A DNA stretch of 64,000 nt. It comes from Muribaculaceae bacterium. Its GTDB lineage: Bacteria > Bacteroidota > Bacteroidia > Bacteroidales > Muribaculaceae. The notes beneath the pieces were generated by a model. The model saw only the letters and a program-made list of their open reading frames with translations, did no database searches and was not told where the DNA came from. This document shows positions 15,874-28,956 of the stretch, piece by piece; within the stretch, counting starts at the first letter, position 1; each line of letters begins with the position of its first letter. The DNA lies in assembly GCA_022484565.1 (NCBI GenBank), contig JAKVKZ010000002.1, positions 29,615-93,614 of the forward strand, given 5' to 3'. Made by a program: the position numbers and the translations under genes.

Positions 15874-17109
15874 ATGGAAATATCGCTAAAGGAGTTCATG
15901 GCATCACAGCCCAACAATCCCAATGTGACAGAATCGGATAAGTATTATTTGCTGCTTGCCAACAGATTGTGCAAAATTTGGGACAATGCGCGGATACTTC
16001 TCAACGTGGGTGATGATACGCGGAAGCGGGTAGTGCTTGCAGTGACAGGATATTATCAGGATATAATAGCCGATGCAGGTGTGTGGCGGTCGTTTTCAAC
16101 GATGTGCCAGCAACTTTATGGCCGTCCTGTACCTATTTACGACCGCCCAGAAGATTACATCGACAGCGAATTGAACGAGATAGACGTGAGGTTCATAATG
16201 TGGTACGTGCTCGAATGCTATTGTGCGGAGAACGGGACAATATCGCCCTACGATGAGGATTTGCTGGGACTTTCGCATAAATTCTTCAATGTGCTTGATG
16301 CGGTGTATGATGACGCACCCACACCAGTGGAATATAATATGATTATGGATGTGGAGCTTGACGATTCAGAGCAAACCAAGCAAATCTACGACCTTTCATA
16401 TTGGCTTTTTTGGAATTGCTATTTTCTGCGTCCTGCAGCCATGCCAACACTTCAGCGGGCCGCAGTGGAAGCACATAAGATTATTCATGAACATCCCGAG
16501 CGCAGTGATGCCGAGCCATTGCTGCTGGAACTGAATGAAAGAATCATGAGCGAGAATCCTACAGGGCCGCTTTCATTGAGCCTCGGTGAATGGATTGAAA
16601 TGATAGTGAACAATAAAATGCCGCAATTCGCGGAGGAGGAATTCAAGGGCGAGCCTCATAAATTTTATGCTGCCCTTACACATGCCACTGGCGGAATTCC
16701 GATAGCGTTCTGCGACAGCTACGAGGCACTTGAGGATTTTGTGAGCAACGCACTTGGATGGGGAACAAACAAGGAAGGACATCTGCCACAAATGAAGAAA
16801 TTCAGCAATTTTGTGCTTTATGCCGATCCCAAGAAAGGACTGCTGATAGCGCATGATGTGGCGCAATTCATCAAGCATCCCGACAATCCAGCATACGATG
16901 CCGAAAAGGCAAAGACAGCAGGACATTCAATGCTGACGCGCCAAGGGGTGTGCCCGATTGATCTTGTGAAATACGTGTTCGAGAATGGATATGCACCTGA
17001 TGTGCGCATGCCATTTGAGAGCGATGACACAGGAAAATCGAGCATTCTCAACGACCATTGGGATTTCTTCGCAAGGCTTTATCTGCAATCGTTCTACCAG
17101 CCCGATTGA
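15874..17109 (+). CDS. Hypothetical protein (possibly DUF3843-like)
   Basis: ORF 15829-17109; start moved to MEISLKEFMASQPNN because the -7 box lies inside the longer ORF; family assignment is tentative. Confidence 0.6.
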   Translation: MEISLKEFMASQPNNPNVTESDKYYLLLANRLCKIWDNARILLNVGDDTRKRVVLAVTGYYQDIIADAGVWRSFSTMCQQLYGRPVPIYDRPEDYIDSELNEIDVRFIMWYVLECYCAENGTISPYDEDLLGLSHKFFNVLDAVYDDAPTPVEYNMIMDVELDDSEQTKQIYDLSYWLFWNCYFLRPAAMPTLQRAAVEAHKIIHEHPERSDAEPLLLELNERIMSENPTGPLSLSLGEWIEMIVNNKMPQFAEEEFKGEPHKFYAALTHATGGIPIAFCDSYEALEDFVSNALGWGTNKEGHLPQMKKFSNFVLYADPKKGLLIAHDVAQFIKHPDNPAYDAEKAKTAGHSMLTRQGVCPIDLVKYVFENGYAPDVRMPFESDDTGKSSILNDHWDFFARLYLQSFYQPD

Positions 17110-17195: not shown

Positions 17196-17203
17196 TATAT
17201 TTG
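17196..17203 (+). promoter_or_regulatory. Putative -7 box TATATTTG upstream of the vWA/tubulin-like/Hsp70-like operon
   Basis: TAnnTTTG match 35 bp upstream of ATG 17239; no clear -33 box. Confidence 0.4.
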
Positions 17204-17238: not shown

Positions 17239-18741
17239 ATGGAAAAAAAGACAATAATTACAGCTGTCGCATCCATTATAGCGATTGTGATATTGGTGTG
17301 CATAATAACCTTTAGCAGTTGCCGGAGAAATTCCGCTCTTGACAAAGAAATAAAAATAGCCTTAGTGAAGGGAGATACAACTAAAGCGGAATATAACAAG
17401 ATTTGCGACATAATCATGAAGGACCAGAGGGCATACTCTGAATACCTGAATGCAGACAAGCAAATCAATGCCGATGCTTTGGCAGAACACATCAACGAAA
17501 TAGGACAATCCATGCGCCCGCCACGCACGTGGAATATAAAAAATTACGGGTCGGCAGCACTGACGCTCAACCTATATCTTGAACGTAGCGGAAGCATGAC
17601 GCCATACGATGCAGCGCAAACATCAGGCGAGCTGAAAAAGGCCATCAACGATCTTATCAACAGTTTCCCGAATAAAAGCGAGAAGAACATGGTGTACATC
17701 GTGAACAGCAGCGTCTATCCTTATAATAAGTCATTACAGGATTTTATGAGAGAGAAAGACATATTTGCTGCCACGGCAGGAATCGGCGACCCTAAATTTA
17801 CTGACTTCTCGCAAATATTCAGCGACATACTCAAGCGGCAGGGCAGCAATGCAATAAGCATACTTGTGACAGATATGATTTATTCGCCTGCCAATACCGA
17901 AAATGAAAATCCGCAAAGGATATTCAATGAGGAAAGCAGTCTTGCGACAAACGTTTTCAAGAACTATCCCGGAAAAGCCGTGATAGTCGTAAAGTTAAAG
18001 GGCAGTTTCAGCGGATTATACTATCCGTACAACCAAAAGCCACAAAAATACACAGGGGCACGTCCGTTCTATGTATTCATTATCGGAGATGCTGAAAACA
18101 TAGATGCATTATACGCTAATGCCTCATATTCAAATTTCCTGAATTTCCAGGCACTTACGGGATTTGAGAATTTCTACGTGTTCAACGGAAAAGAGCGCGG
18201 CGTGAATTATACGGTGGTGCCAGAGTATAAAGACAACATAGGAAGATTCCGCTCGGAAAAAGGCGAAAGCTACTGCGTGCATACTCTTGAAAACTGCGAG
18301 AGTGACCGCGACGCAAACGTGATTCAGTTTACGGTTGCCGCTGATTTGAGTACAACCCATGCAGAAGCCGCTTACCTGAACAATGCAAAAAATTATGAGA
18401 TTGTCAGTTCAGTGAAGGGGTGCAAGATAACCAATATCCGACCAATCGAGCAGGGAGAGGTAACGGGGAACTCAAAAATGTACCTTGAAGGGAAAACGCA
18501 TTTAATAACAATACAATGTCCGCTCGAGCAGCCTGAGCAGAATATCAAAATAGCGCTGAAAAATCATTTCCCTGACTGGATATTGAATTCATCGAGCGAT
18601 AATGACACAAATATAGGCTCAGCAGAGTTCGGTGGAACGACTTTCGGATTGAAATACTTCCTGCAGGGCATCTACAGCGCATGTTCAGCCACATCTGTCA
18701 TGCCAAATTACACGACAATTGAAATAACACTTAAAAAATAA
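17239..18741 (+). CDS. Putative vWA-like lipoprotein/membrane-anchored protein
   Basis: N-terminal hydrophobic segment ending ITFSSCRR; MIDAS-like LNLYLERSGSMTPYD and SILVTDMIYS. Confidence 0.65.
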   Translation: MEKKTIITAVASIIAIVILVCIITFSSCRRNSALDKEIKIALVKGDTTKAEYNKICDIIMKDQRAYSEYLNADKQINADALAEHINEIGQSMRPPRTWNIKNYGSAALTLNLYLERSGSMTPYDAAQTSGELKKAINDLINSFPNKSEKNMVYIVNSSVYPYNKSLQDFMREKDIFAATAGIGDPKFTDFSQIFSDILKRQGSNAISILVTDMIYSPANTENENPQRIFNEESSLATNVFKNYPGKAVIVVKLKGSFSGLYYPYNQKPQKYTGARPFYVFIIGDAENIDALYANASYSNFLNFQALTGFENFYVFNGKERGVNYTVVPEYKDNIGRFRSEKGESYCVHTLENCESDRDANVIQFTVAADLSTTHAEAAYLNNAKNYEIVSSVKGCKITNIRPIEQGEVTGNSKMYLEGKTHLITIQCPLEQPEQNIKIALKNHFPDWILNSSSDNDTNIGSAEFGGTTFGLKYFLQGIYSACSATSVMPNYTTIEITLKK

Positions 18742-18745
18742 TTAT

Positions 18746-19189
18746 ATGCGAAATTTGATTCTTTTGGCATTTGGAATTGTGTTTACAATTCTGTTTCTCA
18801 TCTTTCCGACACAAGTGTACGAAAATTTTTATTTTTCACAAGGATTCTCAGATGCGATGTATAATGGGAGCATGTACATTGTAGTGGCAATCATAACAGC
18901 CGCAATAGCATGGGTGGCGGCAGTAATTTACTACTATGTAATCAATTCGGTGAAATTCGACCGCTGGTGGCATTGGCTTATCATACTTGTGATAACCATT
19001 CTGCTGGCACCGACAGTAAGTTGGGCATACACTGACTACGACATGGCCCAACAAAATTATATGTACGACAAAGAGACATTCTATTTTGAATTACTCAATA
19101 TGTGCGTAGCAGCAGTGCTATTCATAATAGCATCATTTTCAATACGCTGGTGGAGCAGCAATTGCCGGCATACACCAATACCACAATAA
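18746..19189 (+). CDS. Small integral membrane protein (about four TM helices)
   Basis: Four hydrophobic stretches; 4-nt gap from the upstream gene. Confidence 0.75.
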   Translation: MRNLILLAFGIVFTILFLIFPTQVYENFYFSQGFSDAMYNGSMYIVVAIITAAIAWVAAVIYYYVINSVKFDRWWHWLIILVITILLAPTVSWAYTDYDMAQQNYMYDKETFYFELLNMCVAAVLFIIASFSIRWWSSNCRHTPIPQ

Positions 19190-19213
19190 TAAAAAACGAC
19201 AGAATACATAAAA

Positions 19214-20731
19214 ATGAGACTATTTATATTTGCCATAGGCGGTACAGGTTCGCGGGTGCTGAAATCACTGATAATGCTTTCGGCAGCCGGAGTGAAGCCT
19301 CTTGATGAAAGTGGACAAAAAATAAAGGCATTTGAAATAATACCTATCATAGTGGACCCTCATAAATCGAATGAGGACTTGAAACGCACCGATGTGCTGC
19401 TGTCGAATTACAGCACCATAAGAAGACGCCTCTACGGCGATTCGGATGAGGCAGAAGGATTCTTTGCGACCAAGATTTCCACTTTGCGCAGCATAATGAA
19501 GGACACGTCGGTAAACCTGACTGATACCTTTATATTCAATCTGTCGACAGTAGAGAAATGCAAATTCCGCGATTTCATCAACTACGATACGATGAGTGAG
19601 AGCAACCATGCGCTCACATCACTGCTTTTTGCCGACTATCAGCTTGAGAACAAGATGAACATAGGATTTGTCGGTTCACCTAATATCGGAAGTATAGCCT
19701 TGAACCAAATAAAGGACAGCGATGAATTCAAGGCATTCGCCAACATACTGACGAATGACGACCGAATATTCTTCATAAGCTCAATATTCGGCGGAACAGG
19801 AGCATCAGGCTTCCCGATACTGGTGAAGAATATCCGCAATGCCCAAAACCTGAACGTGGCGAATAAAGAATTTCTGCGCAGGGCACCAATCGGAGCATTG
19901 ACTGTGTTGCCGTATTTCAACATTCAGCACACTGACGACGGAAGAATCGACAAGGCGGATTTCATAGTAAAGACGCAGTCGGCACTGCAATATTACAATG
20001 AGACGCTGACCAACGATACTGATGCTCAAATCAACGAGCTTTATTATCTTGGCGATTCCATAAGCTCCTTGCCATATCAGTACGACCCTGGAGAGAACGG
20101 GCAAAAGAACAATGCACATCTTATAGAAATGATAGGCGCACTCGCACCGCTGAAATTTGCCGGAACACCCGACTATAAGCTGCGTGACCAAAATGGATAT
20201 CCATTGAAGACGGCAGCCTACGAATACGGCTTGGAAACTGACACGAATGAAGTGACGTTCAAGGCGTTTGGGGCTTCGACAAGGCATCTTTTATATAATG
20301 ATATGGTGAAATTCCATTTGCTTTATATGTATCTCAAAAACGGTTTTGAGAAGAATATCGGAAAAGGATACACTCAGGATGCGCCAGAGATAAGGAATGA
20401 ATTCACCGCGACAGATTTCTACAGGACACTCGACACGCAATTCTTCACAGCATACGTGGATTGGCTTGGAGAAATGCGCAACAACAACCGCAGCGTGAAC
20501 CTTTTCGATTATCTCAGCGCTGACATGAACAATGTGATTAGCGGAGTGGGAACGAAAAAGACATGGGTAGGGCACAAGAGCATAAGTTGCGACTCATTCT
20601 TGAGCGAGATGAACCGGCTCAGCCGTGACAACAAGAGCTATTCGGCAGGCCACGAGGAGTTCAAACTGTTTGACCTGTTCAACCGTGCCGCCGACAATCT
20701 TCTGCCTGACAAATATGAAAACATCAATTAA
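19214..20731 (+). CDS. Tubulin/FtsZ-like (Tubulin_2-type) protein
   Basis: N-terminal FAIGGTGSRVLKSL, IIPIIVDPHKSNEDLKR, and tubulin-signature-like SSIFGGTGASGFPIL. Confidence 0.72.
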   Translation: MRLFIFAIGGTGSRVLKSLIMLSAAGVKPLDESGQKIKAFEIIPIIVDPHKSNEDLKRTDVLLSNYSTIRRRLYGDSDEAEGFFATKISTLRSIMKDTSVNLTDTFIFNLSTVEKCKFRDFINYDTMSESNHALTSLLFADYQLENKMNIGFVGSPNIGSIALNQIKDSDEFKAFANILTNDDRIFFISSIFGGTGASGFPILVKNIRNAQNLNVANKEFLRRAPIGALTVLPYFNIQHTDDGRIDKADFIVKTQSALQYYNETLTNDTDAQINELYYLGDSISSLPYQYDPGENGQKNNAHLIEMIGALAPLKFAGTPDYKLRDQNGYPLKTAAYEYGLETDTNEVTFKAFGASTRHLLYNDMVKFHLLYMYLKNGFEKNIGKGYTQDAPEIRNEFTATDFYRTLDTQFFTAYVDWLGEMRNNNRSVNLFDYLSADMNNVISGVGTKKTWVGHKSISCDSFLSEMNRLSRDNKSYSAGHEEFKLFDLFNRAADNLLPDKYENIN

Positions 20732-20743
20732 AGGATTATCATT

Positions 20744-23700
20744 ATGAGCAATATACTGTCGTACAACAATAGCACAAACAAAACGGGCGCTGAGGACTGG
20801 ATTCCGGTCACGCCCTATACTGATGATGACATCAAAAAGATAAAAGATCCGAACGGCGGGCTGTCGGAAAGTCCGCGCACAGCCATACCAAGTCCGTTCG
20901 CGCAGCTCGATTTGGTGAAAAACGCTTTTGCACATCTCGGCGCAAGCGATAAATTGCGGGGTGCAGTTATGGATATGCGTCTGGTGTCGAATGCGCTTGA
21001 CATAGCACAATTGTTTTTCTGTTTTGAGAACCATAAGGACTATCTGCGGGTGGTGCGCTGGAACTGCGAATCGGATTTGCAGGCACTAAAAGCGTCGCCG
21101 GCACACAGGTTGTATGGTGAAACGCTTGAATTATTCCTCAATTCGGACAAGAACGCATATAATTTTGACGGATTCACTGATTGGTATATACTGATAAATG
21201 ACGTCACAGTAATTGGAGCTACATCCCCTGCCTCGTTGACTATGGCTGCTCCAATCAATCATCAGATAGACAGCATCATGGTGGAGCAGGGAGTAAGCCT
21301 ATTCTCTTCGGTGCGCCAATTATGGGAACGTGATGAGGATTTTGTGCTCTATATGTTCCTGCTTTTCAACGCATTTCCGATGCTGCGCCAAAGATTGGGC
21401 GGAATTTACACATATATGCTCCGCAATCTTGATGTGATAAGGGAAAAGCGCACAGATTTGTATAAACGAATCAGCGACGACATCACTAATCCTACAGCAC
21501 TCGACATGAGCGCTGCCGATGTTCTCCGTCAGAAACTTGACGAATACTACACGCCATTTAATGGCGATGTCACCATATCGGTGCTTGGAGCACAATTCTA
21601 CAAGAAACGCAGTTCAGTGATACGCGCGAATGTGGAGGAGAGCGATTTTCAGCTTAAACCGTCCCGCCAGCAGGCTGACGGAGATGTGCTGCCACTTGTG
21701 CTTCGCAGCAACTTTGACGGTTCGGTTGACAATATGAAGTATATTGACAAGATGTGGAACAGCACAACTGAGGTACTGACCGGTGGAGTGCCAGTAGAGT
21801 CAAGGAAACTGCCGGATTCCTCAATATATTATCCATTTGTAACCACGAACGATTTTTTGTCGGATACAATCATCCAGCTCAGCGGCCCGATTGATAATTC
21901 GCACTATTTCGACGGAAATCTGAAGAGCCGCAGCGTTGAGCCGGAGAACGGATATTTGTTGCCGTTGACCCCATTGTTCTTCAAGTATTTCAATTCAGAG
22001 GATCTGCTGCATGAAGTGTTCGGCAGGAAAATGATTGAGATAACCGAGGGAAAAGATGAGGTGAAGGTGCTGCTGCGCATACCGATGAAAAAGAAATACA
22101 TGGAACTTTTCCGCATATACCGATTGGCACCCGAGGCAGACTGGAGATTCAACGAGAAAATCAATATCGGGCGGATGATTCCGCAAGTGCGCATTTCCAC
22201 CGCTGTTTTCCCGTTTGTCAAGACAGGCGTGTCCGACAGCTATTCGGTGCAATTGTTCTCGATGGTACAGACAGCGACGACATCGCTGCAATTTTATGCC
22301 AATGGCAACAAACCCGTAGGGAATGACGCCAATGGAGGAATAAGGTCGGAATCATTATTCACAACACGTTATTATGACATTGATGCTACGTTCGATTATT
22401 TTGAAGTGATGATGGCAAGCGATTTCGGCACTCAAAGCGGAGTGGTTCTGCCATTGTGGAAGCCTTATACCGCATCGAGCAAAGAATTGATTTTTGCAGT
22501 GGATTTCGGAACAACCAATTCGCATGTGGAATATGCCGAAAAGGGGCAGTTGCCTGAAACAATAACATTCAATGACAATACGGAGCAGGAACTCGTTGCC
22601 ACTTTGCTGAAAAAGGGAGCACTTGACCAGGCCGAAACGCTGATGCGTGTGGAATTTTTGCCGCGTGACATCGACAACATCTATGGCTTCCCGCTGCGCA
22701 CGGCACTTGCAATTAATGACGATAACAATGGCGATACAAAACTGTTCAAGGACTTAAACATCCCATTCCTTTATGAGAGGAAATATTTTGCTGGCTATAA
22801 TGTGATAACGAGTCTGAAATGGACCGGCAATCAAATGCTGTCGCAAGAATTTCTGCGGGAGATAGTACTGCTGATAAAGGCAAAGGTGCTTCTTGAAAAC
22901 GCAAGTCTTGCAAATACGCATATCGTGTATTTTTATCCAGTCAGCATGAGCGGAAACAAACGGGCGCAATTCAATGAATTGTGGGAACGCCTGTTCTCAA
23001 CCTACATCGGCGGTGATGCCAAGAACCTGTATTTCTACCCCGAATCAATTGCTCCAGCTTATTATTACAAGAATTCCGCTGTGGCAGGCAGTTGCTACGT
23101 GTCGATTGATATTGGCGGCGGCACAAGCGATGTGGTGGTGTACACTCCGACAGCCGATAAACTGAAAAGCGAGCCGAACATAATTTCATCATTCCGCTTT
23201 GCCGGAAATGCCATATTCGGTGACGGTTTCACCCAGAATGATGCTGACAATAATCCGCTGCTCGACCATTACACGGAATATTTCAAGAAACTCATCAATA
23301 AGAATGATGACCTTGCATATCTTAACAGCATACTGAATGAGGTGATGAACCAGAAAAGGTCGGAGGACATCAATGCGTTCCTGTTCTCAATAGAGAACGT
23401 AGAGGAACTGCGTAAACTTCGGGAGATAGACCGTCAGCTTTATTCATACAATGCACTGCTCCGCAATGATGAACACAGGAAGCTGATATTCCTGTACTTC
23501 TATTCGGCAATCATCTATTATATCTGCTGCATGATGAAGCATCGCGGATTGATAATGCCGAAACAGGTTTATTTCAGCGGAACAGGTTCGAAGATATTGA
23601 ATATAATAGGAAATATCGAACAGATTGAAAGCTTGACAAAGACTATAATTGAAAGAGTGTTCGGCCAAAGTTACACTGAAAAGTTCGAGATAAAGATTGA

Positions 23701-24172
23701 GAAGGACAAGCCGAAACAAATAACCTGCAAAGGCGGAATCCAACTTGAAAATGAAAGGCTTGCAGGGAATGTTGACAACGATTGGTTCAAGCCCGCAAAT
23801 GTGAACAAGCTGAAATACTGCTATTCAATGACGAAGGATGAGACGTTGACATTCGGAAAAGTCAATGAGCTTGACACCCGTCATGAAATAGAGAAGCAAG
23901 TGAATGACTTCAATGAATTCTTCATGTCGCTTTGCACGAATGAAGTGAAAGATGAGTTTGGCATCGACAACAAGGTGCTGCACGTTTTCCATGATGCTCT
24001 TTCCGACAACATTTTCAATTATCTTACGGCTGGCATCAACAGCTATCTGAATGGTAACTATGATGGGCCAGAGGAAGTGATTGAGGATGTGCCGTTCTTC
24101 TATCCGATAATCGGAATTATTCGTAACAATCTGCTTAAGCAACTTTGTCACGAGGTGATAAGCAAGCTTTAA
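20744..24172 (+). CDS. Large Hsp70/actin-like ATPase with a ~580-aa N-terminal extension
   Basis: Phosphate-1 LIFAVDFGTTNSHVEYA, phosphate-2 YVSIDIGGGTSDVVVY, adenosine-like KQVYFSGTGSKIL. Confidence 0.82.
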   Translation: MSNILSYNNSTNKTGAEDWIPVTPYTDDDIKKIKDPNGGLSESPRTAIPSPFAQLDLVKNAFAHLGASDKLRGAVMDMRLVSNALDIAQLFFCFENHKDYLRVVRWNCESDLQALKASPAHRLYGETLELFLNSDKNAYNFDGFTDWYILINDVTVIGATSPASLTMAAPINHQIDSIMVEQGVSLFSSVRQLWERDEDFVLYMFLLFNAFPMLRQRLGGIYTYMLRNLDVIREKRTDLYKRISDDITNPTALDMSAADVLRQKLDEYYTPFNGDVTISVLGAQFYKKRSSVIRANVEESDFQLKPSRQQADGDVLPLVLRSNFDGSVDNMKYIDKMWNSTTEVLTGGVPVESRKLPDSSIYYPFVTTNDFLSDTIIQLSGPIDNSHYFDGNLKSRSVEPENGYLLPLTPLFFKYFNSEDLLHEVFGRKMIEITEGKDEVKVLLRIPMKKKYMELFRIYRLAPEADWRFNEKINIGRMIPQVRISTAVFPFVKTGVSDSYSVQLFSMVQTATTSLQFYANGNKPVGNDANGGIRSESLFTTRYYDIDATFDYFEVMMASDFGTQSGVVLPLWKPYTASSKELIFAVDFGTTNSHVEYAEKGQLPETITFNDNTEQELVATLLKKGALDQAETLMRVEFLPRDIDNIYGFPLRTALAINDDNNGDTKLFKDLNIPFLYERKYFAGYNVITSLKWTGNQMLSQEFLREIVLLIKAKVLLENASLANTHIVYFYPVSMSGNKRAQFNELWERLFSTYIGGDAKNLYFYPESIAPAYYYKNSAVAGSCYVSIDIGGGTSDVVVYTPTADKLKSEPNIISSFRFAGNAIFGDGFTQNDADNNPLLDHYTEYFKKLINKNDDLAYLNSILNEVMNQKRSEDINAFLFSIENVEELRKLREIDRQLYSYNALLRNDEHRKLIFLYFYSAIIYYICCMMKHRGLIMPKQVYFSGTGSKILNIIGNIEQIESLTKTIIERVFGQSYTEKFEIKIEKDKPKQITCKGGIQLENERLAGNVDNDWFKPANVNKLKYCYSMTKDETLTFGKVNELDTRHEIEKQVNDFNEFFMSLCTNEVKDEFGIDNKVLHVFHDALSDNIFNYLTAGINSYLNGNYDGPEEVIEDVPFFYPIIGIIRNNLLKQLCHEVISKL

Positions 24173-24202
24173 AAATAATTCATTAATAAGATTTCTGCTA
24201 TT

Positions 24203-25357
24203 ATGAAGAAGATTATGATGATTGCCTTTTGCGCCTTGACTTTCATGGCGGCAATGGCGGCGGGACAGACTGCAAGTCAGGCCCCTGCGAAGGAAGCATA
24301 TTCAGATACGACGGTGATGACTGATGCCCAATGGGACCATGCTTTGGCAATAGTAGCCATCACGGCAGTGAACCAGACCGATAGCGACCCGAACCTTACG
24401 ATGCAAACGGCAAGCGGTAAATATGGCGACAATCCATTGTGGGGAGAAATCACTGATAAGTTAGGGCAGTTGGCAAATGCCCCCAAGACTTTAAAGGCGT
24501 TGGAACCCGTTGCAATGGACGTGTTTAAACTTGCAAAAGTTCAAGACAATACCATAAATGAAAAGGATTGCTGGACTGCGGCCAAAGATGCTATAATCAA
24601 GTCGAATACGGCTGTTCAGAAACCAGCAAACCAGCCATCGCAAGTGTTGCCGCAGAATGTTCAAACTGAGGAACAAGAACATCCGCACGGATTAGACATG
24701 AATAATTTAATCAACATTGTCATCAATGTCCTTATGCTGGCACTTGCAGTGTTTGCCGTGATAACCGCGATGCGGGCAAAAAATCAGGTGGATAATTTGA
24801 AAGATAAATTTAAGGGTGACATTGACGCATTGATGAATGAAATCAAAAAGCGTGAAGATGAACTCAAACGCTCACTGGGACAATTAAACAACTATTTGAA
24901 TAATCAACAGCATGCAGAAAGCGATGATGAGCCAATAAGGAACGATACGCAATATAATAATGTCCAATATCCGGTTCAAACGCCGCAAAGGCCACAGCAG
25001 CAACCGCCGCAATCACCTTATAGCCAAGCTCAACCGCCACGCAAACTGTTTCTCTCGAAAGCTGACAGAAATGGCCAATTCATAAAAGCTACGGATAAAT
25101 ATGATTTAGGAAATTCGATTTTTGAACTCAGCACTTCTGACGGAAAAAACGGCACTTTCAGAGTGGTTGACTCACAAAGCGTACACGAGATGGCACTTAT
25201 GATGCCAACTGATTATCTGACACGAGTATGCAGCGGCGATAATATACAGCTTTCACAGGGAAAGCATTGCATAGTTACCGATACTCCGGGCACCGCACGC
25301 TATGAATCAGGCCATTGGGTAATGGTTACAAAAGCTGCCATTCATTATGAAGCTTAG
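24203..25357 (+). CDS. Membrane protein with signal peptide, central TM, coiled coil and Pro/Gln-rich linker
   Basis: Signal-like MKKIMMIAFCALTFMAAMAAG; TM INIVINVLMLALAVFAVITAM; coiled coil; PQRPQQQPPQSPYSQAQPP linker; C-terminal globular domain. Confidence 0.65.
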   Translation: MKKIMMIAFCALTFMAAMAAGQTASQAPAKEAYSDTTVMTDAQWDHALAIVAITAVNQTDSDPNLTMQTASGKYGDNPLWGEITDKLGQLANAPKTLKALEPVAMDVFKLAKVQDNTINEKDCWTAAKDAIIKSNTAVQKPANQPSQVLPQNVQTEEQEHPHGLDMNNLINIVINVLMLALAVFAVITAMRAKNQVDNLKDKFKGDIDALMNEIKKREDELKRSLGQLNNYLNNQQHAESDDEPIRNDTQYNNVQYPVQTPQRPQQQPPQSPYSQAQPPRKLFLSKADRNGQFIKATDKYDLGNSIFELSTSDGKNGTFRVVDSQSVHEMALMMPTDYLTRVCSGDNIQLSQGKHCIVTDTPGTARYESGHWVMVTKAAIHYEA

Positions 25358-25883
25358 CATCAGTTGGTTTGTGGCATTAGTCGTTGTCTTGATGATTGGG
25401 CTGACTTTTTCATCATGCCGTGTGCGTCATCACACGGTTAATGGCAAAAGAAGTGAGCGGGTAAGCGGAAATGATGGTGGCGACAGTCGCCATGTAGGGA
25501 AGCAAATCATCAAGATGCGGGAGGAAAATGGCGTGTACTATATTCCTGTAAAGATAGATGATGTGCCGATGGAATTCATCTACGACACTGGTGCTGCCAT
25601 TGTTTCCATTTCGGTGGTTGAAGCAGAATTTCTGTATCGACAAGGAAAACTCAGCGACGCTGACGTGGTGGGCGAGGGTGATTTTGGCGATGCAAACGGC
25701 ACTGTGACTAAAAATACCATTGTGATTCTGCATAATGTTACTGTCGGCGATTACACAATTCATGACGTGCAGGCGGCAGTTTCGGAAAATCAGAATGCGC
25801 CTTTACTGTTTGGTCAGACGGCCATGAAGCGATTCGGCAAGGTCACTTTTGATTATGAGAACGATGAATTGATAATAGAATGA
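25347..25883 (+). CDS. Retropepsin-like aspartic protease lipoprotein
   Basis: Lipobox-like LTFSSCRVR; active-site-like MEFIYDTGAAIVSIS; LLFGQTAMKRFGKVTFDYENDELII. Confidence 0.78.
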   Translation: MKLSISWFVALVVVLMIGLTFSSCRVRHHTVNGKRSERVSGNDGGDSRHVGKQIIKMREENGVYYIPVKIDDVPMEFIYDTGAAIVSISVVEAEFLYRQGKLSDADVVGEGDFGDANGTVTKNTIVILHNVTVGDYTIHDVQAAVSENQNAPLLFGQTAMKRFGKVTFDYENDELIIE

Positions 25884-25906
25884 CAAAAAAGGAAGAGTTG
25901 TAGGTT

Positions 25907-26599
25907 ATGAAGTTGAAATGCCCAGAATGCGGTAAGGAAATAGAAGTTTCAGAAGAAATACTTAAGAAAGTAGGAGGCTCTGTGACTTGTCCAAGTTGCC
26001 TGACCGATTTCGTAGTAGATGGATTCGCTTCATTGCCTTCGGCGCAGAATGATTCGCAACAGAAGGAAAAAGCAAAGTCAGAACCAGAAAAGGAAGAAAC
26101 CCAATTCTGTCCAAAGTGCGGGAAGAAAATTCCGCGCAATGTGCATTATTGTCCTAATTGTGCTTATAGCTTCATTGCGCCCGACCTTCCTAAAACGGTA
26201 GCTCCGCCACCAATAACGTATTCTGTGCAGCAGCCAATGGATCCACCTCAAATTGTTCAATCTCAACCGCAACAACCATTGGCACCTCAATTTCCGTCGA
26301 ATATGACCAAATGGAACTGGGGGGCATTCTTGTTCACACCAATCTGGGGATTGTTCAATGGCATATATTGGCTATTGTGGATGTTTGTATTTTACTGTAT
26401 TCCTGGTGGTATACTAATCAATCTTATAATAAGTTTTTCATTTGGAAGTTCGGGAAATAGAAAAGCTTGGGCTAAATATAATGGTACAGTTGAGGACTTT
26501 GAGAATAAACAACACGGATGGAATGTGGCTGGAATATTGGTTTTTCTGTTGGGAATACTATTTATAGTTATTGAATTGATAAGTATCTATTATCACTAA
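25907..26599 (+). CDS. Zinc-ribbon membrane protein (two zinc ribbons, C-terminal DUF2628-like TM region)
   Basis: CPECGKEI...CPSC and CPKCGKKIPRNVHYCPNC; WNWGAFLFTPIWGLFNGIYWLLW. Confidence 0.75.
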   Translation: MKLKCPECGKEIEVSEEILKKVGGSVTCPSCLTDFVVDGFASLPSAQNDSQQKEKAKSEPEKEETQFCPKCGKKIPRNVHYCPNCAYSFIAPDLPKTVAPPPITYSVQQPMDPPQIVQSQPQQPLAPQFPSNMTKWNWGAFLFTPIWGLFNGIYWLLWMFVFYCIPGGILINLIISFSFGSSGNRKAWAKYNGTVEDFENKQHGWNVAGILVFLLGILFIVIELISIYYH

Positions 26600-26690: not shown

Positions 26691-26739
26691 AAAGCAAAAA
26701 CAAGTAAACTTGATTTGCATTTCCATTCGCCTTGCACTA
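26691..26739 (+). repeat. 49-bp direct repeat, copy 2 (promoter module)
   Basis: Perfect copy of 26606-26654, offset 85 bp. Confidence 0.95.
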
Positions 26740-26745
26740 TCTTTG
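26714..26745 (+). promoter_or_regulatory. Putative promoter TTTG-N20-TATCTTTG for the antiporter gene
   Basis: TTTG 26714-26717, 20-nt spacer, TATCTTTG 26738-26745; ATG at 26764. Confidence 0.8.
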
Positions 26746-26763: not shown

Positions 26764-28956
26764 ATGGACGCTACTATTACACATGCTCTTATTACCAACC
26801 CCGTTTTGATATTCTTCACGGTGCTGGTGATAATCCTCATGGCGCCATTGCTGTTGACACGGTTGAAAATTCCGCAGGTAGTGGGCCTGATTATTGCGGG
26901 CGTGATTGTTGGCCCTTATGGGCTGAATCTATTGGAGCGCGACAGCAGTTTTGAGATATTCGGGCAGGTGGGATTGCTCTATTTGATGTTCCTTGCCGGA
27001 CTTGAAATTGACATGTTCCACTTAAAGAAGAATATCCGCAAGGGACTTGGATTTGGACTTCTCACATTTCTAATACCGTTAATTCTCGGAACTTTAGCAA
27101 GCGTTACAATGCTGCATCTCGGATGGATTACAGCAATCCTTGTGGCATCAATGTACGCTTCCCATACTTTGATAGCATATCCTGTGGTGACTCGATTCGG
27201 AATTACAAAATCGCCTGCGGTGCTGATTACAATTGTAGGCACCATTGTGGCAGTACTTGGGTCATTGCTCGTTCTTGGCGTTGTGGTCGGGATACAGAGC
27301 CAAGGAGAATTTGCAATAAGCAACATTTTGCGGCTTTTGCTGAATGTGGCAATTTATTGTGCCGCTATTCTATATCTCTACCCACGAATAATGCGGTGGT
27401 TCTTCAAGACTTTCAGTGACAGTGTTACCCAGTTTGTGTTTGTTCTTGCATTGGTGTTCCTTGCTTCATGGCTTGCTAAGGTGGTAGGACTTGAATCAGT
27501 GCTTGGAGCATTCTTCGCTGGACTTGTTCTTAATAGATACGTGCCGAACATTTCACCGCTGATGAACAGAATTGAATTTGTGGGAAACGCACTGTTCATA
27601 CCCTATTTCCTGATAGGCGTGGGAATGATGATAAACATTAGGGTGATGTCGAGCACCGACACTATGGTCGTGGCGGGAAATATGCTGCTTGTGGCAATAT
27701 CCACAAAATGGATTGCAGCATATATAGCACAGAAGATAAACAGATTCACAAGGAACGACAGAAGCATAATGTTTGGTCTTAGTTCGGCGCATACAGCAGT
27801 CGCCCTTGCCGTGGTGACACTTGGCTACAACATGCTTTTGCCTGATGGAAGCCATGCATTGAGCGAGGCCGTGATGAACGGGACTATCGTGATGATACTC
27901 GTGACCTGCACTATGGCACCAATTGTCACTTCAGGAGCGGCAGCCAAGATGAAAATAAGGATGATGGAACATCCCGAAGACTATGACGAGGAGAAGAGGA
28001 CGGAGAAGAAACAGATGCGGACGTTGATTCCAGTTGCTAATCCAGTGACGGCATCAAGCCTGGTGACTTTGGCACTGCTGATGAAGCGCAAGACAACCGA
28101 TGATTCAATTTTTGCTCTGCATGTGAGGAATGATAATTCGTCATCATCGGTGGCAATAGGGCGGAATGCCCTAAAACTCGCAGGCGAAACTGCCGCCGCG
28201 GTGAACGTGACGATGCAGACAATTGAGAGGTACGACCTTAACACTTCCACTGGAATAATCAATACCGTGAAAGAACGCAATATAACCGACATTGTAGTAG
28301 GAATGCATCAACATTCCAATATTGTGGACAGTTTCTTCGGCAGCAAAATTGAACAGCTATTGAAAGAACTGAACAATATGGTGATTATTTCACGATGCTT
28401 CATTCCAATCAATACGATAACGCGAATAGTGGTGGTGGTTCCCGAAAAGGCGGAATTCGAGACTGGATTCGAGGCTTGGATAATCCGAGTGACAAATCTT
28501 GCAATGCGGATAGGGTGCAGAATAATATTCTGTGCTTATCAGACTACGATACAGATGATTCACAGCGCATTCAAGGCTGAAAACATAGAAGTGCGGAGCG
28601 AATTCAGGGAAGTGAAGGAATGGGGCGACTTGGTGCTTATAGCCAATAACCTGCTTGACGACGACTTGATGATATTAATCGGGGCACGCCGAGCTTCAGT
28701 GTCGTTCAACCTTGAGATGGACACATTGCCGAATTTCCTTGCCAAATATTTTGCAAGAAACAATTTGCTGGTGATATTTCCTGAGCAATTCGGTGAAACG
28801 CCGAAACTTACCAGACTCAGCAACCAGCTTTCAGCCGACATCACTGCAACGCCTTCCGGTGCATGGCTTCGCCTGCGTGCATGGTTCCGCTGGCTGAACA
28901 CCCAAAAGAAGCGCATCACGCACCGCAACCGCAAGAAACGCACTTTCGACCTATAG
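26764..28956 (+). CDS. CPA2-type cation:proton antiporter with C-terminal Usp-like region
   Basis: Polytopic N-terminal half with KIPQVVGLIIAGVIVGPYGLNLL and FLAGLEIDM; soluble C-terminal half. Confidence 0.9.
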   Translation: MDATITHALITNPVLIFFTVLVIILMAPLLLTRLKIPQVVGLIIAGVIVGPYGLNLLERDSSFEIFGQVGLLYLMFLAGLEIDMFHLKKNIRKGLGFGLLTFLIPLILGTLASVTMLHLGWITAILVASMYASHTLIAYPVVTRFGITKSPAVLITIVGTIVAVLGSLLVLGVVVGIQSQGEFAISNILRLLLNVAIYCAAILYLYPRIMRWFFKTFSDSVTQFVFVLALVFLASWLAKVVGLESVLGAFFAGLVLNRYVPNISPLMNRIEFVGNALFIPYFLIGVGMMINIRVMSSTDTMVVAGNMLLVAISTKWIAAYIAQKINRFTRNDRSIMFGLSSAHTAVALAVVTLGYNMLLPDGSHALSEAVMNGTIVMILVTCTMAPIVTSGAAAKMKIRMMEHPEDYDEEKRTEKKQMRTLIPVANPVTASSLVTLALLMKRKTTDDSIFALHVRNDNSSSSVAIGRNALKLAGETAAAVNVTMQTIERYDLNTSTGIINTVKERNITDIVVGMHQHSNIVDSFFGSKIEQLLKELNNMVIISRCFIPINTITRIVVVVPEKAEFETGFEAWIIRVTNLAMRIGCRIIFCAYQTTIQMIHSAFKAENIEVRSEFREVKEWGDLVLIANNLLDDDLMILIGARRASVSFNLEMDTLPNFLAKYFARNNLLVIFPEQFGETPKLTRLSNQLSADITATPSGAWLRLRAWFRWLNTQKKRITHRNRKKRTFDL

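What the first reader, a model, noticed from the sequence alone, without database searches (positions are those of the whole stretch)
17239..26599. Candidate undescribed operon combining a tubulin/FtsZ-like protein with a giant Hsp70/actin-like ATPase, a vWA-like lipoprotein and membrane partners
Seen in sequence: seven same-strand ORFs with gaps of about 4-66 nt and one 11-nt overlap. They encode a vWA-like lipoprotein, a 4-TM protein, an FtsZ/tubulin-like protein (FAIGGTGSR, FGGTGASGFP), a 1142-aa Hsp70/actin-like protein (VDFGTTNSH, IDIGGGTSDVVV, FSGTGSK), a TM-coiled-coil protein, a retropepsin-like lipoprotein and a double zinc-ribbon TM protein. Established: Makarova and Koonin described FtsZ-like families in putative membrane-remodelling systems that include vWA proteins, a distinct GTPase and OmpA-family proteins. 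Inference: this operon pairs both cytoskeletal NTPase folds with a membrane sensor module, suggesting an envelope-remodelling, stress or defence machine not covered by that description.
Basis: partly seen in the sequence, partly recalled or inferred. Interest (0 to 1): 0.9.

Follow-up and report, generated by a model that had tools for sequence, protein, structure and literature searches.

The report
Tubulin–Hsp70-like envelope machine operon
A gut bacterium carries a conserved, patchily distributed gene cassette in which a tubulin-like and a giant Hsp70/actin-like protein always sit side by side with a von-Willebrand-type lipoprotein and membrane partners; it looks like an undescribed machine that links the cell envelope to the cell interior, possibly for defence, but its function is untested.

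Summary
The seven ORFs are real. AlphaFold and Foldseek confirm both NTPase folds: the 505-aa protein has a divergent tubulin GTPase domain and the 1142-aa protein has an actin/Hsp70/MreB ATPase domain in its C-terminal half. Of 111 loci with a full Hsp-like gene, 109 have Tub beside it, 101 the vWA lipoprotein and 91 each the 4-TM and TM-coiled-coil proteins, in one fixed order. Tub and Hsp distances correlate at r = 0.97, so the genes travel together. In species-level samples the cassette is patchy (35/198 Muribaculaceae, 9/398 Bacteroidota); deep relatives sit on cyanobacterial plasmids. Two features were not in the finding. Many deep relatives also carry a ZorA/ZorB-like (MotAB) ion motor, absent from the window's clade. 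The retropepsin lipoprotein fills a slot held elsewhere by a trypsin-like protease, never both. Canonical FtsZl1 (Tubulin_2) loci lack the Hsp partner (0 of 5). Published relatives are FtsZl1–vWA systems (Makarova & Koonin 2010) and GTPase conflict systems, where tubulin and HSP70 are non-overlapping themes (Kaur et al. 2020). I call it a new variant: an envelope-anchored sensor–effector machine, defence or envelope stress being likeliest. No function is demonstrated.

The parts
17239..18741 (+). vWA-like lipoprotein (500 aa), periplasmic by lipobox (Cys28); ExSGS MIDAS-like motif E115/S117/S119 with T188 and D212
   Evidence: present in 101 of 111 loci
18746..19189 (+). Small 4-TM inner-membrane protein (147 aa)
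   Evidence: present in 91 of 111 loci
19214..20731 (+). Tub: tubulin/FtsZ-superfamily GTPase-like protein (505 aa); T1 IGGTGSR and T4 FGGTGAS; no coiled-coil
20744..24172 (+). Hsp: giant Hsp70/actin-superfamily ATPase-like protein (1142 aa); ATPase domain about 580-1040, unique beta-rich N-terminal half
24203..25357 (+). TMcc: signal/TM + coiled-coil protein with conserved ~90-aa C-terminal domain (384 aa)
   Evidence: present in 91 of 111 loci
25347..25883 (+). Retropepsin-like aspartic protease lipoprotein (178 aa, DTGA motif, Cys24 lipobox); accessory protease slot
   Evidence: PF13975 E 6.9e-14; 9 of 111 loci
25907..26599 (+). Double zinc-ribbon membrane protein (230 aa); accessory gene of the window's clade
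   Evidence: zinc-ribbon protein in 57 of 111 loci

Best explanation
The operon encodes one envelope-anchored, two-nucleotide machine that senses a change at the cell envelope and triggers a response. Shown by computation: a lipoprotein with a vWA-like domain outside the inner membrane, two inner-membrane proteins, a cytosolic tubulin-like GTPase and a cytosolic giant Hsp70/actin-like ATPase are inherited as one unit, and an exported protease is a recurrent accessory. Inferred: the vWA lipoprotein binds a ligand or damaged envelope component; the membrane proteins pass this inward; the tubulin-like and Hsp70/actin-like proteins, always encoded side by side, form a joint membrane-bound assembly driven by GTP and ATP; the assembly licenses an effector, here the retropepsin lipoprotein. 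In many deep relatives a ZorA/ZorB-like ion motor is added to the same operon, so ion flow may power or trigger the assembly there, as proposed for Zorya. The likeliest purpose is conditional protection of the cell: anti-phage or other conflict, or acute envelope stress.
For: Folds: Tub model pLDDT 85.8, top PDB hits tubulins; Hsp model pLDDT 83.7, DnaK/MreB/actin/ParM E about 1e-8. Motifs kept: Tub T1 119/122 and T4 119/122; Hsp phosphate-1 108/110, phosphate-2 84/110. One unit: 109/111 loci with Tub near Hsp on the same strand; in a sample of 247 Bacteroidales genomes all 11 full-length Hsp loci have Tub immediately upstream; distance correlation Hsp-Tub 0.967, Hsp-vWA 0.911, permutation p = 0.001. 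Patchy and mobile-looking: 35/198 species in the family, 9/398 in the phylum; two unlike copies in the same genome; Muribaculaceae loci scattered over the tree; varied flanks; cyanobacterial plasmid relatives. Envelope link: lipoboxes and TM segments; ZorB-like gene E 2e-15 and ZorA-like E 1e-7 in 15 loci; protease slot of retropepsin (9) or trypsin-like (8), never both, sometimes followed by an SNase-type nuclease. Conflict-system link: one relative (L018) carries a ParA-like/DO-GTPase1-like gene, below Pfam cut-off.
Against: No experiment of any kind. None of the window proteins convincingly matches a known defence component (the PD-T4-6 hit on TMcc, 3e-5, covers its TM/coiled-coil region). 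The window copy lies in a chromosomal region without compositional signs of an island, and no empty site was found. It is frequent in one genus of the family (g18), so it is not purely sporadic. The motor is absent from the window's clade. GTP or ATP hydrolysis and a Tub-Hsp interaction are inferred. The vWA fold was not modelled.
Confidence: 0.5

Rival explanations
1. Constitutive envelope-remodelling or vesicle cytoskeleton, as proposed for FtsZl1 systems: Tub and Hsp polymerise on the inner membrane and shape or traffic envelope material, without a trigger or effector.
For: Tub belongs to the FtsZl1/Tubulin_2 neighbourhood, the operon holds vWA, and OmpA-type proteins occur in relatives, matching the published FtsZl1 context.
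Against: Patchy presence, several unlike copies per genome and exchangeable protease/nuclease genes fit a conditional system better; canonical FtsZl1 loci lack the Hsp partner.
Confidence: 0.25
2. Envelope proteostasis device: the Hsp70-like ATPase is a membrane-tethered chaperone that hands substrates to the exported protease, the vWA domain acting as adaptor.
For: Hsp70 NBD fold; protease slot directly downstream; vWA domains are known chaperone adaptors in MoxR systems (PMC7159879).
Against: Foldseek matches are to the nucleotide-binding domain and equally to MreB/actin; no GrpE or DnaJ gene in the operon; the protease is present in a minority of loci; chaperone and protease are predicted on opposite sides of the membrane.
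Confidence: 0.12
3. A cytomotive DNA-segregation system, like TubZ or ParM.
For: Both a tubulin-like and an actin-like NTPase; some relatives lie on plasmids.
Against: No DNA-binding adaptor gene among the seven; mostly chromosomal; several membrane and exported partners.
Confidence: 0.03

Closest known systems
FtsZl1 (Pfam Tubulin_2, PF13809)-vWA predicted membrane-remodelling systems, Makarova & Koonin 2010 (PMC2875224)
   Same: Tubulin-superfamily protein encoded with a vWA protein and membrane proteins; OmpA-family protein in some loci; relatives of Tub reach PF13809 (L018 above cut-off).
   Different: Tub is 505 aa without the coiled-coil that typifies FtsZl1; the constant giant Hsp70/actin-like partner is not mentioned in the parts of their text read here (their unnamed B families could not be checked); no P-loop GTPase in the window; five canonical FtsZl1 loci lack the Hsp partner.
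GTPase-centric (DO-GTPase/GAP1-N2) conflict systems with tubulin or HSP70 themes, Kaur et al. 2020 (PMC7159879)
   Same: Tubulin, HSP70-family, vWA, zinc-ribbon, trypsin and TM components near the membrane.
   Different: There the tubulin and HSP70 themes are described as non-overlapping and centre on DO-GTPase plus GAP1, mainly Actinobacteria and Firmicutes. Here tubulin-like and Hsp70-like are always together, without GTPase or GAP1 in the window.
Zorya anti-phage system (ZorAB motor; PMC11890865)
   Same: Many deep relatives carry a MotA-like protein with long cytoplasmic tail and a MotB/OmpA-like protein scoring as ZorA/ZorB.
   Different: No ZorC/D, E or F/G partner found among the proteins scanned; the window copy has no motor at all.
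TerD-associated tubulin/Hsp loci (L020, L023, L162, L171, L172)
   Same: Short Tub plus giant Hsp-like neighbour, preceded by lipoprotein-like and TM genes.
   Different: Hsp only distantly similar (E 1e-12 to 1e-25), downstream genes are TerD proteins; a sister type.

Membership tests
Tubulin/FtsZ superfamily (Tub) | GTP-binding N-domain with T1 and T4 (GGTG) loops | tested here: met
   Motifs in 119/122 members; 26/27 members hit PF00091; Foldseek tubulin hits, prob 0.99, TM 0.2-0.28 only
FtsZl1 family (Makarova & Koonin) | FtsZ domain followed by extended coiled-coil and helical C-terminal domain | tested here: not met
   505 aa, no long coiled-coil segment in the model; canonical loci encode about 1000-1200 aa proteins
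FtsZl1 family (Makarova & Koonin) | PF13809 profile above cut-off | tested here: inconclusive
   Window Tub does not reach it; relative L018 does, 30.8 bits vs 27; 23/27 members hit weakly
FtsZl2 family (Makarova & Koonin) | No coiled-coil, ~300-aa alpha/beta C-terminal region; Proteobacteria; no conserved neighbours | tested here: not met
   Architecture is similar, but strong conserved neighbours and Bacteroidota/Cyanobacteriota hosts; sequence comparison to PFL_1302 not done
Actin/Hsp70 ATPase superfamily (Hsp) | Actin/Hsp70 ATPase fold with phosphate-1, phosphate-2 and adenosine motifs | tested here: met
   Foldseek E 1.6e-8, prob 1.0; invariant D587, G589, D789, G791, G792, D796, G946, G948
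Hsp70 chaperone (DnaK type) | Substrate-binding domain and DnaJ/GrpE partners | tested here: not met
   PDB matches cover the NBD; no DnaJ or GrpE in the operon
vWA domain (lipoprotein) | MIDAS DxSxS...T...D in a vWA fold | tested here: inconclusive
   ExSxS plus T and D conserved, DxSxS in cyanobacterial relatives; hhalign E 1.6e-4 to true vWA; no Pfam hit; fold not modelled
DO-GTPase/GAP1 conflict systems | TRAFAC DO-GTPase and GAP1 proteins | tested here: not met
   No Pfam GTPase or GAP1 hit in the seven proteins; only L018 has a sub-threshold DO-GTPase1 match
Zorya | ZorA and ZorB with ZorC/D, ZorE or ZorF/G | tested here: not met
   Window has no ZorAB; relatives have ZorAB-like genes but none of the tested proteins hit other Zor models
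Retropepsin-like protease | Clan AA D-S/T-G motif | tested here: met
   PF13975 E 6.9e-14; DTGA in all 10 members

The most novel reading that the evidence does not exclude
A previously undescribed bacterial immune or conflict machine, spread from Bacteroidota to Cyanobacteriota, in which a tubulin-like GTPase and an Hsp70/actin-like ATPase co-assemble at the membrane under control of a vWA lipoprotein, powered in its fuller form by a Zorya-like ion motor and acting through exchangeable exported proteases and nucleases.
Probability: 0.35. Interest if true: 0.88.

Novelty: new variant of a known kind. Interest (0 to 1): 0.72.

Why it matters
I know of no characterised bacterial system that couples a tubulin-fold and an actin/Hsp70-fold NTPase in one dedicated operon (own knowledge; the paper searches found none). 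If they assemble together, this would be a new cytoskeletal principle in bacteria. It would give the FtsZ-like families of 2010, still without a function in the papers found here, a constant ATPase partner to test, and would tie ZorAB-like motors to a second kind of cytosolic machinery. Culturable hosts of the family exist (for example Cryomorpha ignava, Halomarinibacterium sedimenti, Picosynechococcus sp. PCC 8807), so it is testable.

Tried and rejected
DUF3843 (15874-17109) and the Na+/H+ exchanger (26764-28956) as operon members: rejected, as relatives' loci almost never contain them and the two are not linked to each other in relatives. Empty-site search through those flanks: none found. 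PDB profile search for the vWA protein: no hit. Pfam by members for the vWA protein and its cyanobacterial relatives: no vWA hit. PDB profile search with TMcc: only coiled-coil-type matches. MscL hit of TMcc (3.6e-4, below cut-off): rejected as TM/coiled-coil similarity. Weak Hsp-profile hits across Bacteroidales (mostly E 0.0001-0.001, profile 806-848): open frames of roughly 420-490 aa, read as FtsA-like proteins and not counted. Promoter: a TAnnTTTG motif lies at 17196-17203, but the motif is not enriched in the window, so no claim. Phage genomes: no match. No paper describing the gene set; the 2012 Ter-systems paper was not held.
Full report
OBSERVATION. The seven ORFs are where the finding places them, all on the + strand, with spacings of 4, 24, 12, 30, -11 and 23 nt. 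The window comes from a draft Bacteroidales genome whose relatives are Muribaculaceae. Base composition of the operon is ordinary for the window.

THE TWO NTPases. From single sequences the family databases say little: Tub has a sub-threshold PF00091 hit (E = 0.01) and Hsp nothing relevant. With relatives the picture is clear. In a 27-member alignment 26 members hit PF00091 and 23 hit PF13809 Tubulin_2, best 2.4e-7; one relative, L018, passes the PF13809 cut-off. AlphaFold gives Tub pLDDT 85.8 and pTM 0.89, and nearly all leading PDB matches are tubulins, best E = 2.6e-3, probability 0.99, but TM-score only 0.2-0.28. It is therefore a tubulin GTPase domain with a divergent remainder. Hsp gives pLDDT 83.7, and the leading PDB matches are DnaK, MreB, actin and ParM, E about 1e-8, probability 1.0. 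The actin/Hsp70 domain lies in the C-terminal half; the N-terminal half is beta-rich with no Pfam match. Nucleotide-binding motifs are retained in nearly all family members: Tub T1 119/122 and T4 119/122, Hsp phosphate-1 108/110, phosphate-2 84/110 and adenosine motif 105/110. Hydrolysis itself is inferred.

THE OTHER PRODUCTS. The first protein has a lipobox at Cys28, invariant in the alignment, and an ExSxS motif with a downstream T and D at MIDAS positions. Profile comparison with genuine vWA proteins gives hhalign E = 1.6e-4 with all three MIDAS elements aligned; of the eleven control comparisons, ten fall at 0.014 or worse and one reaches 0.006. Cyanobacterial relatives have the canonical DxSGSM. 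No Pfam vWA model hits, so I call it vWA-like. The 147-aa protein has about four TM segments, TMcc one TM plus coiled-coil and a conserved C-terminal domain of about 90 aa. The retropepsin (PF13975, 6.9e-14) is a lipoprotein, and the last gene has zinc ribbons and TM segments.

CONSERVATION. A scan of one genome per species found at least 567 Tub relatives; the 80 best loci plus neighbourhoods from whole genomes gave 111 loci with a full Hsp gene. Tub accompanies it in 109, the vWA lipoprotein in 101, 4TM and TMcc in 91 each, in the order vWA - 4TM - Tub - Hsp - TMcc with short gaps. Missing genes are often at contig ends or lost to my mechanical ORF picking. The 80-locus set is biased to close relatives, so the fair test is the sample of 247 Bacteroidales genomes: 11 full-length Hsp loci in 9 genomes, all 11 with Tub immediately upstream. 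Pairwise distances of Hsp and Tub correlate at 0.967, Hsp and vWA at 0.911 (50 dereplicated loci, p = 0.001 by permutation).

DISTRIBUTION. 35 of 198 sampled Muribaculaceae species and 9 of 398 sampled Bacteroidota species carry it, the window's genome counted in both. Some genomes have two unlike copies, including the window's own. Muribaculaceae loci are scattered over the tree and flanking genes differ, which fits repeated horizontal transfer, although one genus carries it often. Relatives with the same gene order, all annotated as hypothetical or unknown, lie on two cyanobacterial plasmids.

ACCESSORY GENES, NOT IN THE FINDING. Fifteen loci, mostly deep branches, carry directly after TMcc or Hsp a MotA-like protein with a long cytoplasmic tail and a MotB/OmpA-like protein; representatives score as ZorA (about 1e-7) and ZorB (2e-15). 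None of these loci has the zinc-ribbon protein found in 57 others. On the tree motor-bearing loci occupy several deep branches while the zinc-ribbon type is nested around the window, so the simplest reading is an older motor form with loss in the window's clade; the tree is unrooted and this is an inference. After the motor, or after TMcc where there is none, comes in many loci a protease: retropepsin in 9 or trypsin-like in 8, never both, followed in three loci by an SNase-type nuclease. The window's retropepsin is thus one occupant of a recurrent slot.

RELATION TO KNOWN SYSTEMS. Makarova & Koonin (PMC2875224) described FtsZl1 with vWA, a GTPase and OmpA proteins, and FtsZl2 without conserved neighbours. 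Window Tub lacks the FtsZl1 coiled-coil, and five loci of canonical FtsZl1 (about 1000-1200 aa) have no Hsp partner, whereas short-Tub loci generally do, including two further TerD-type loci. Kaur et al. (PMC7159879) described DO-GTPase systems in which tubulin and HSP70 are separate, non-overlapping themes. The window has neither DO-GTPase nor GAP1; one relative, L018, carries a sub-threshold DO-GTPase1 match next to the module. Zorya (PMC11890865) shares the motor type with deep relatives only. Hence 'new variant of a known kind'. One published gap remains: the unnamed B families of 2010 may include this Hsp protein.

MECHANISM. Shown by computation: gene linkage, folds, conserved motifs, envelope topology signals, accessory-gene pattern. 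Inferred: joint Tub-Hsp assembly at the membrane, signal from the vWA lipoprotein, effector role of the protease, ion-motor input in relatives, and a protective purpose. Patchiness, multiple unlike copies, exchangeable hydrolases and the ZorAB-like and DO-GTPase-like links lean towards a conflict or defence role, but envelope stress or remodelling is not excluded.

Noticed in passing
window:26606-26660 and 26691-26745: A 55-nt direct repeat (96% identical) lies between the zinc-ribbon gene and the Na+/H+ exchanger; both copies end in a TAnnTTTG motif, so it may be a duplicated promoter region of the exchanger.
   Followed up: partly
L162:2941-16869; also L020, L023, L171, L172: A sister type pairs a short tubulin-like protein and giant Hsp-like protein with TerD genes; in L162 it lies beside a relaxase-like gene and an excisionase-like gene, suggesting a mobilizable element.
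   Followed up: partly
L018:10487-11998: ParA-like protein with a sub-threshold DO-GTPase1 domain (PF19975, 20.1 bits vs 27) directly after the vWA-Tub-Hsp module.
   Followed up: partly
L131 and L132 (G717:C319): The Hsp gene of this relative is split: its first and second parts lie about 41 kb apart on one contig, as if a large element had inserted.
   Followed up: no
L015:14393-17122 and L102 (second Hsp, 908 aa): Two loci carry a second, shorter Hsp paralogue that lacks about 290 N-terminal residues, directly after the full-length one.
   Followed up: no
L163:4294-13460 and L164:4200-14766: Cyanobacterial plasmids carry the same vWA-TM-Tub-Hsp-TMcc order with these genes annotated as hypothetical or unknown, followed by a further membrane-protein gene (annotated TM2 domain in L164).
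   Followed up: partly
L017 (G000:C42): The window's own genome holds a second, diverged copy (Tub 36% identical) without retropepsin or close zinc-ribbon gene, followed by a 427-aa protein with weak zinc-ribbon and DUF533 matches.
   Followed up: partly
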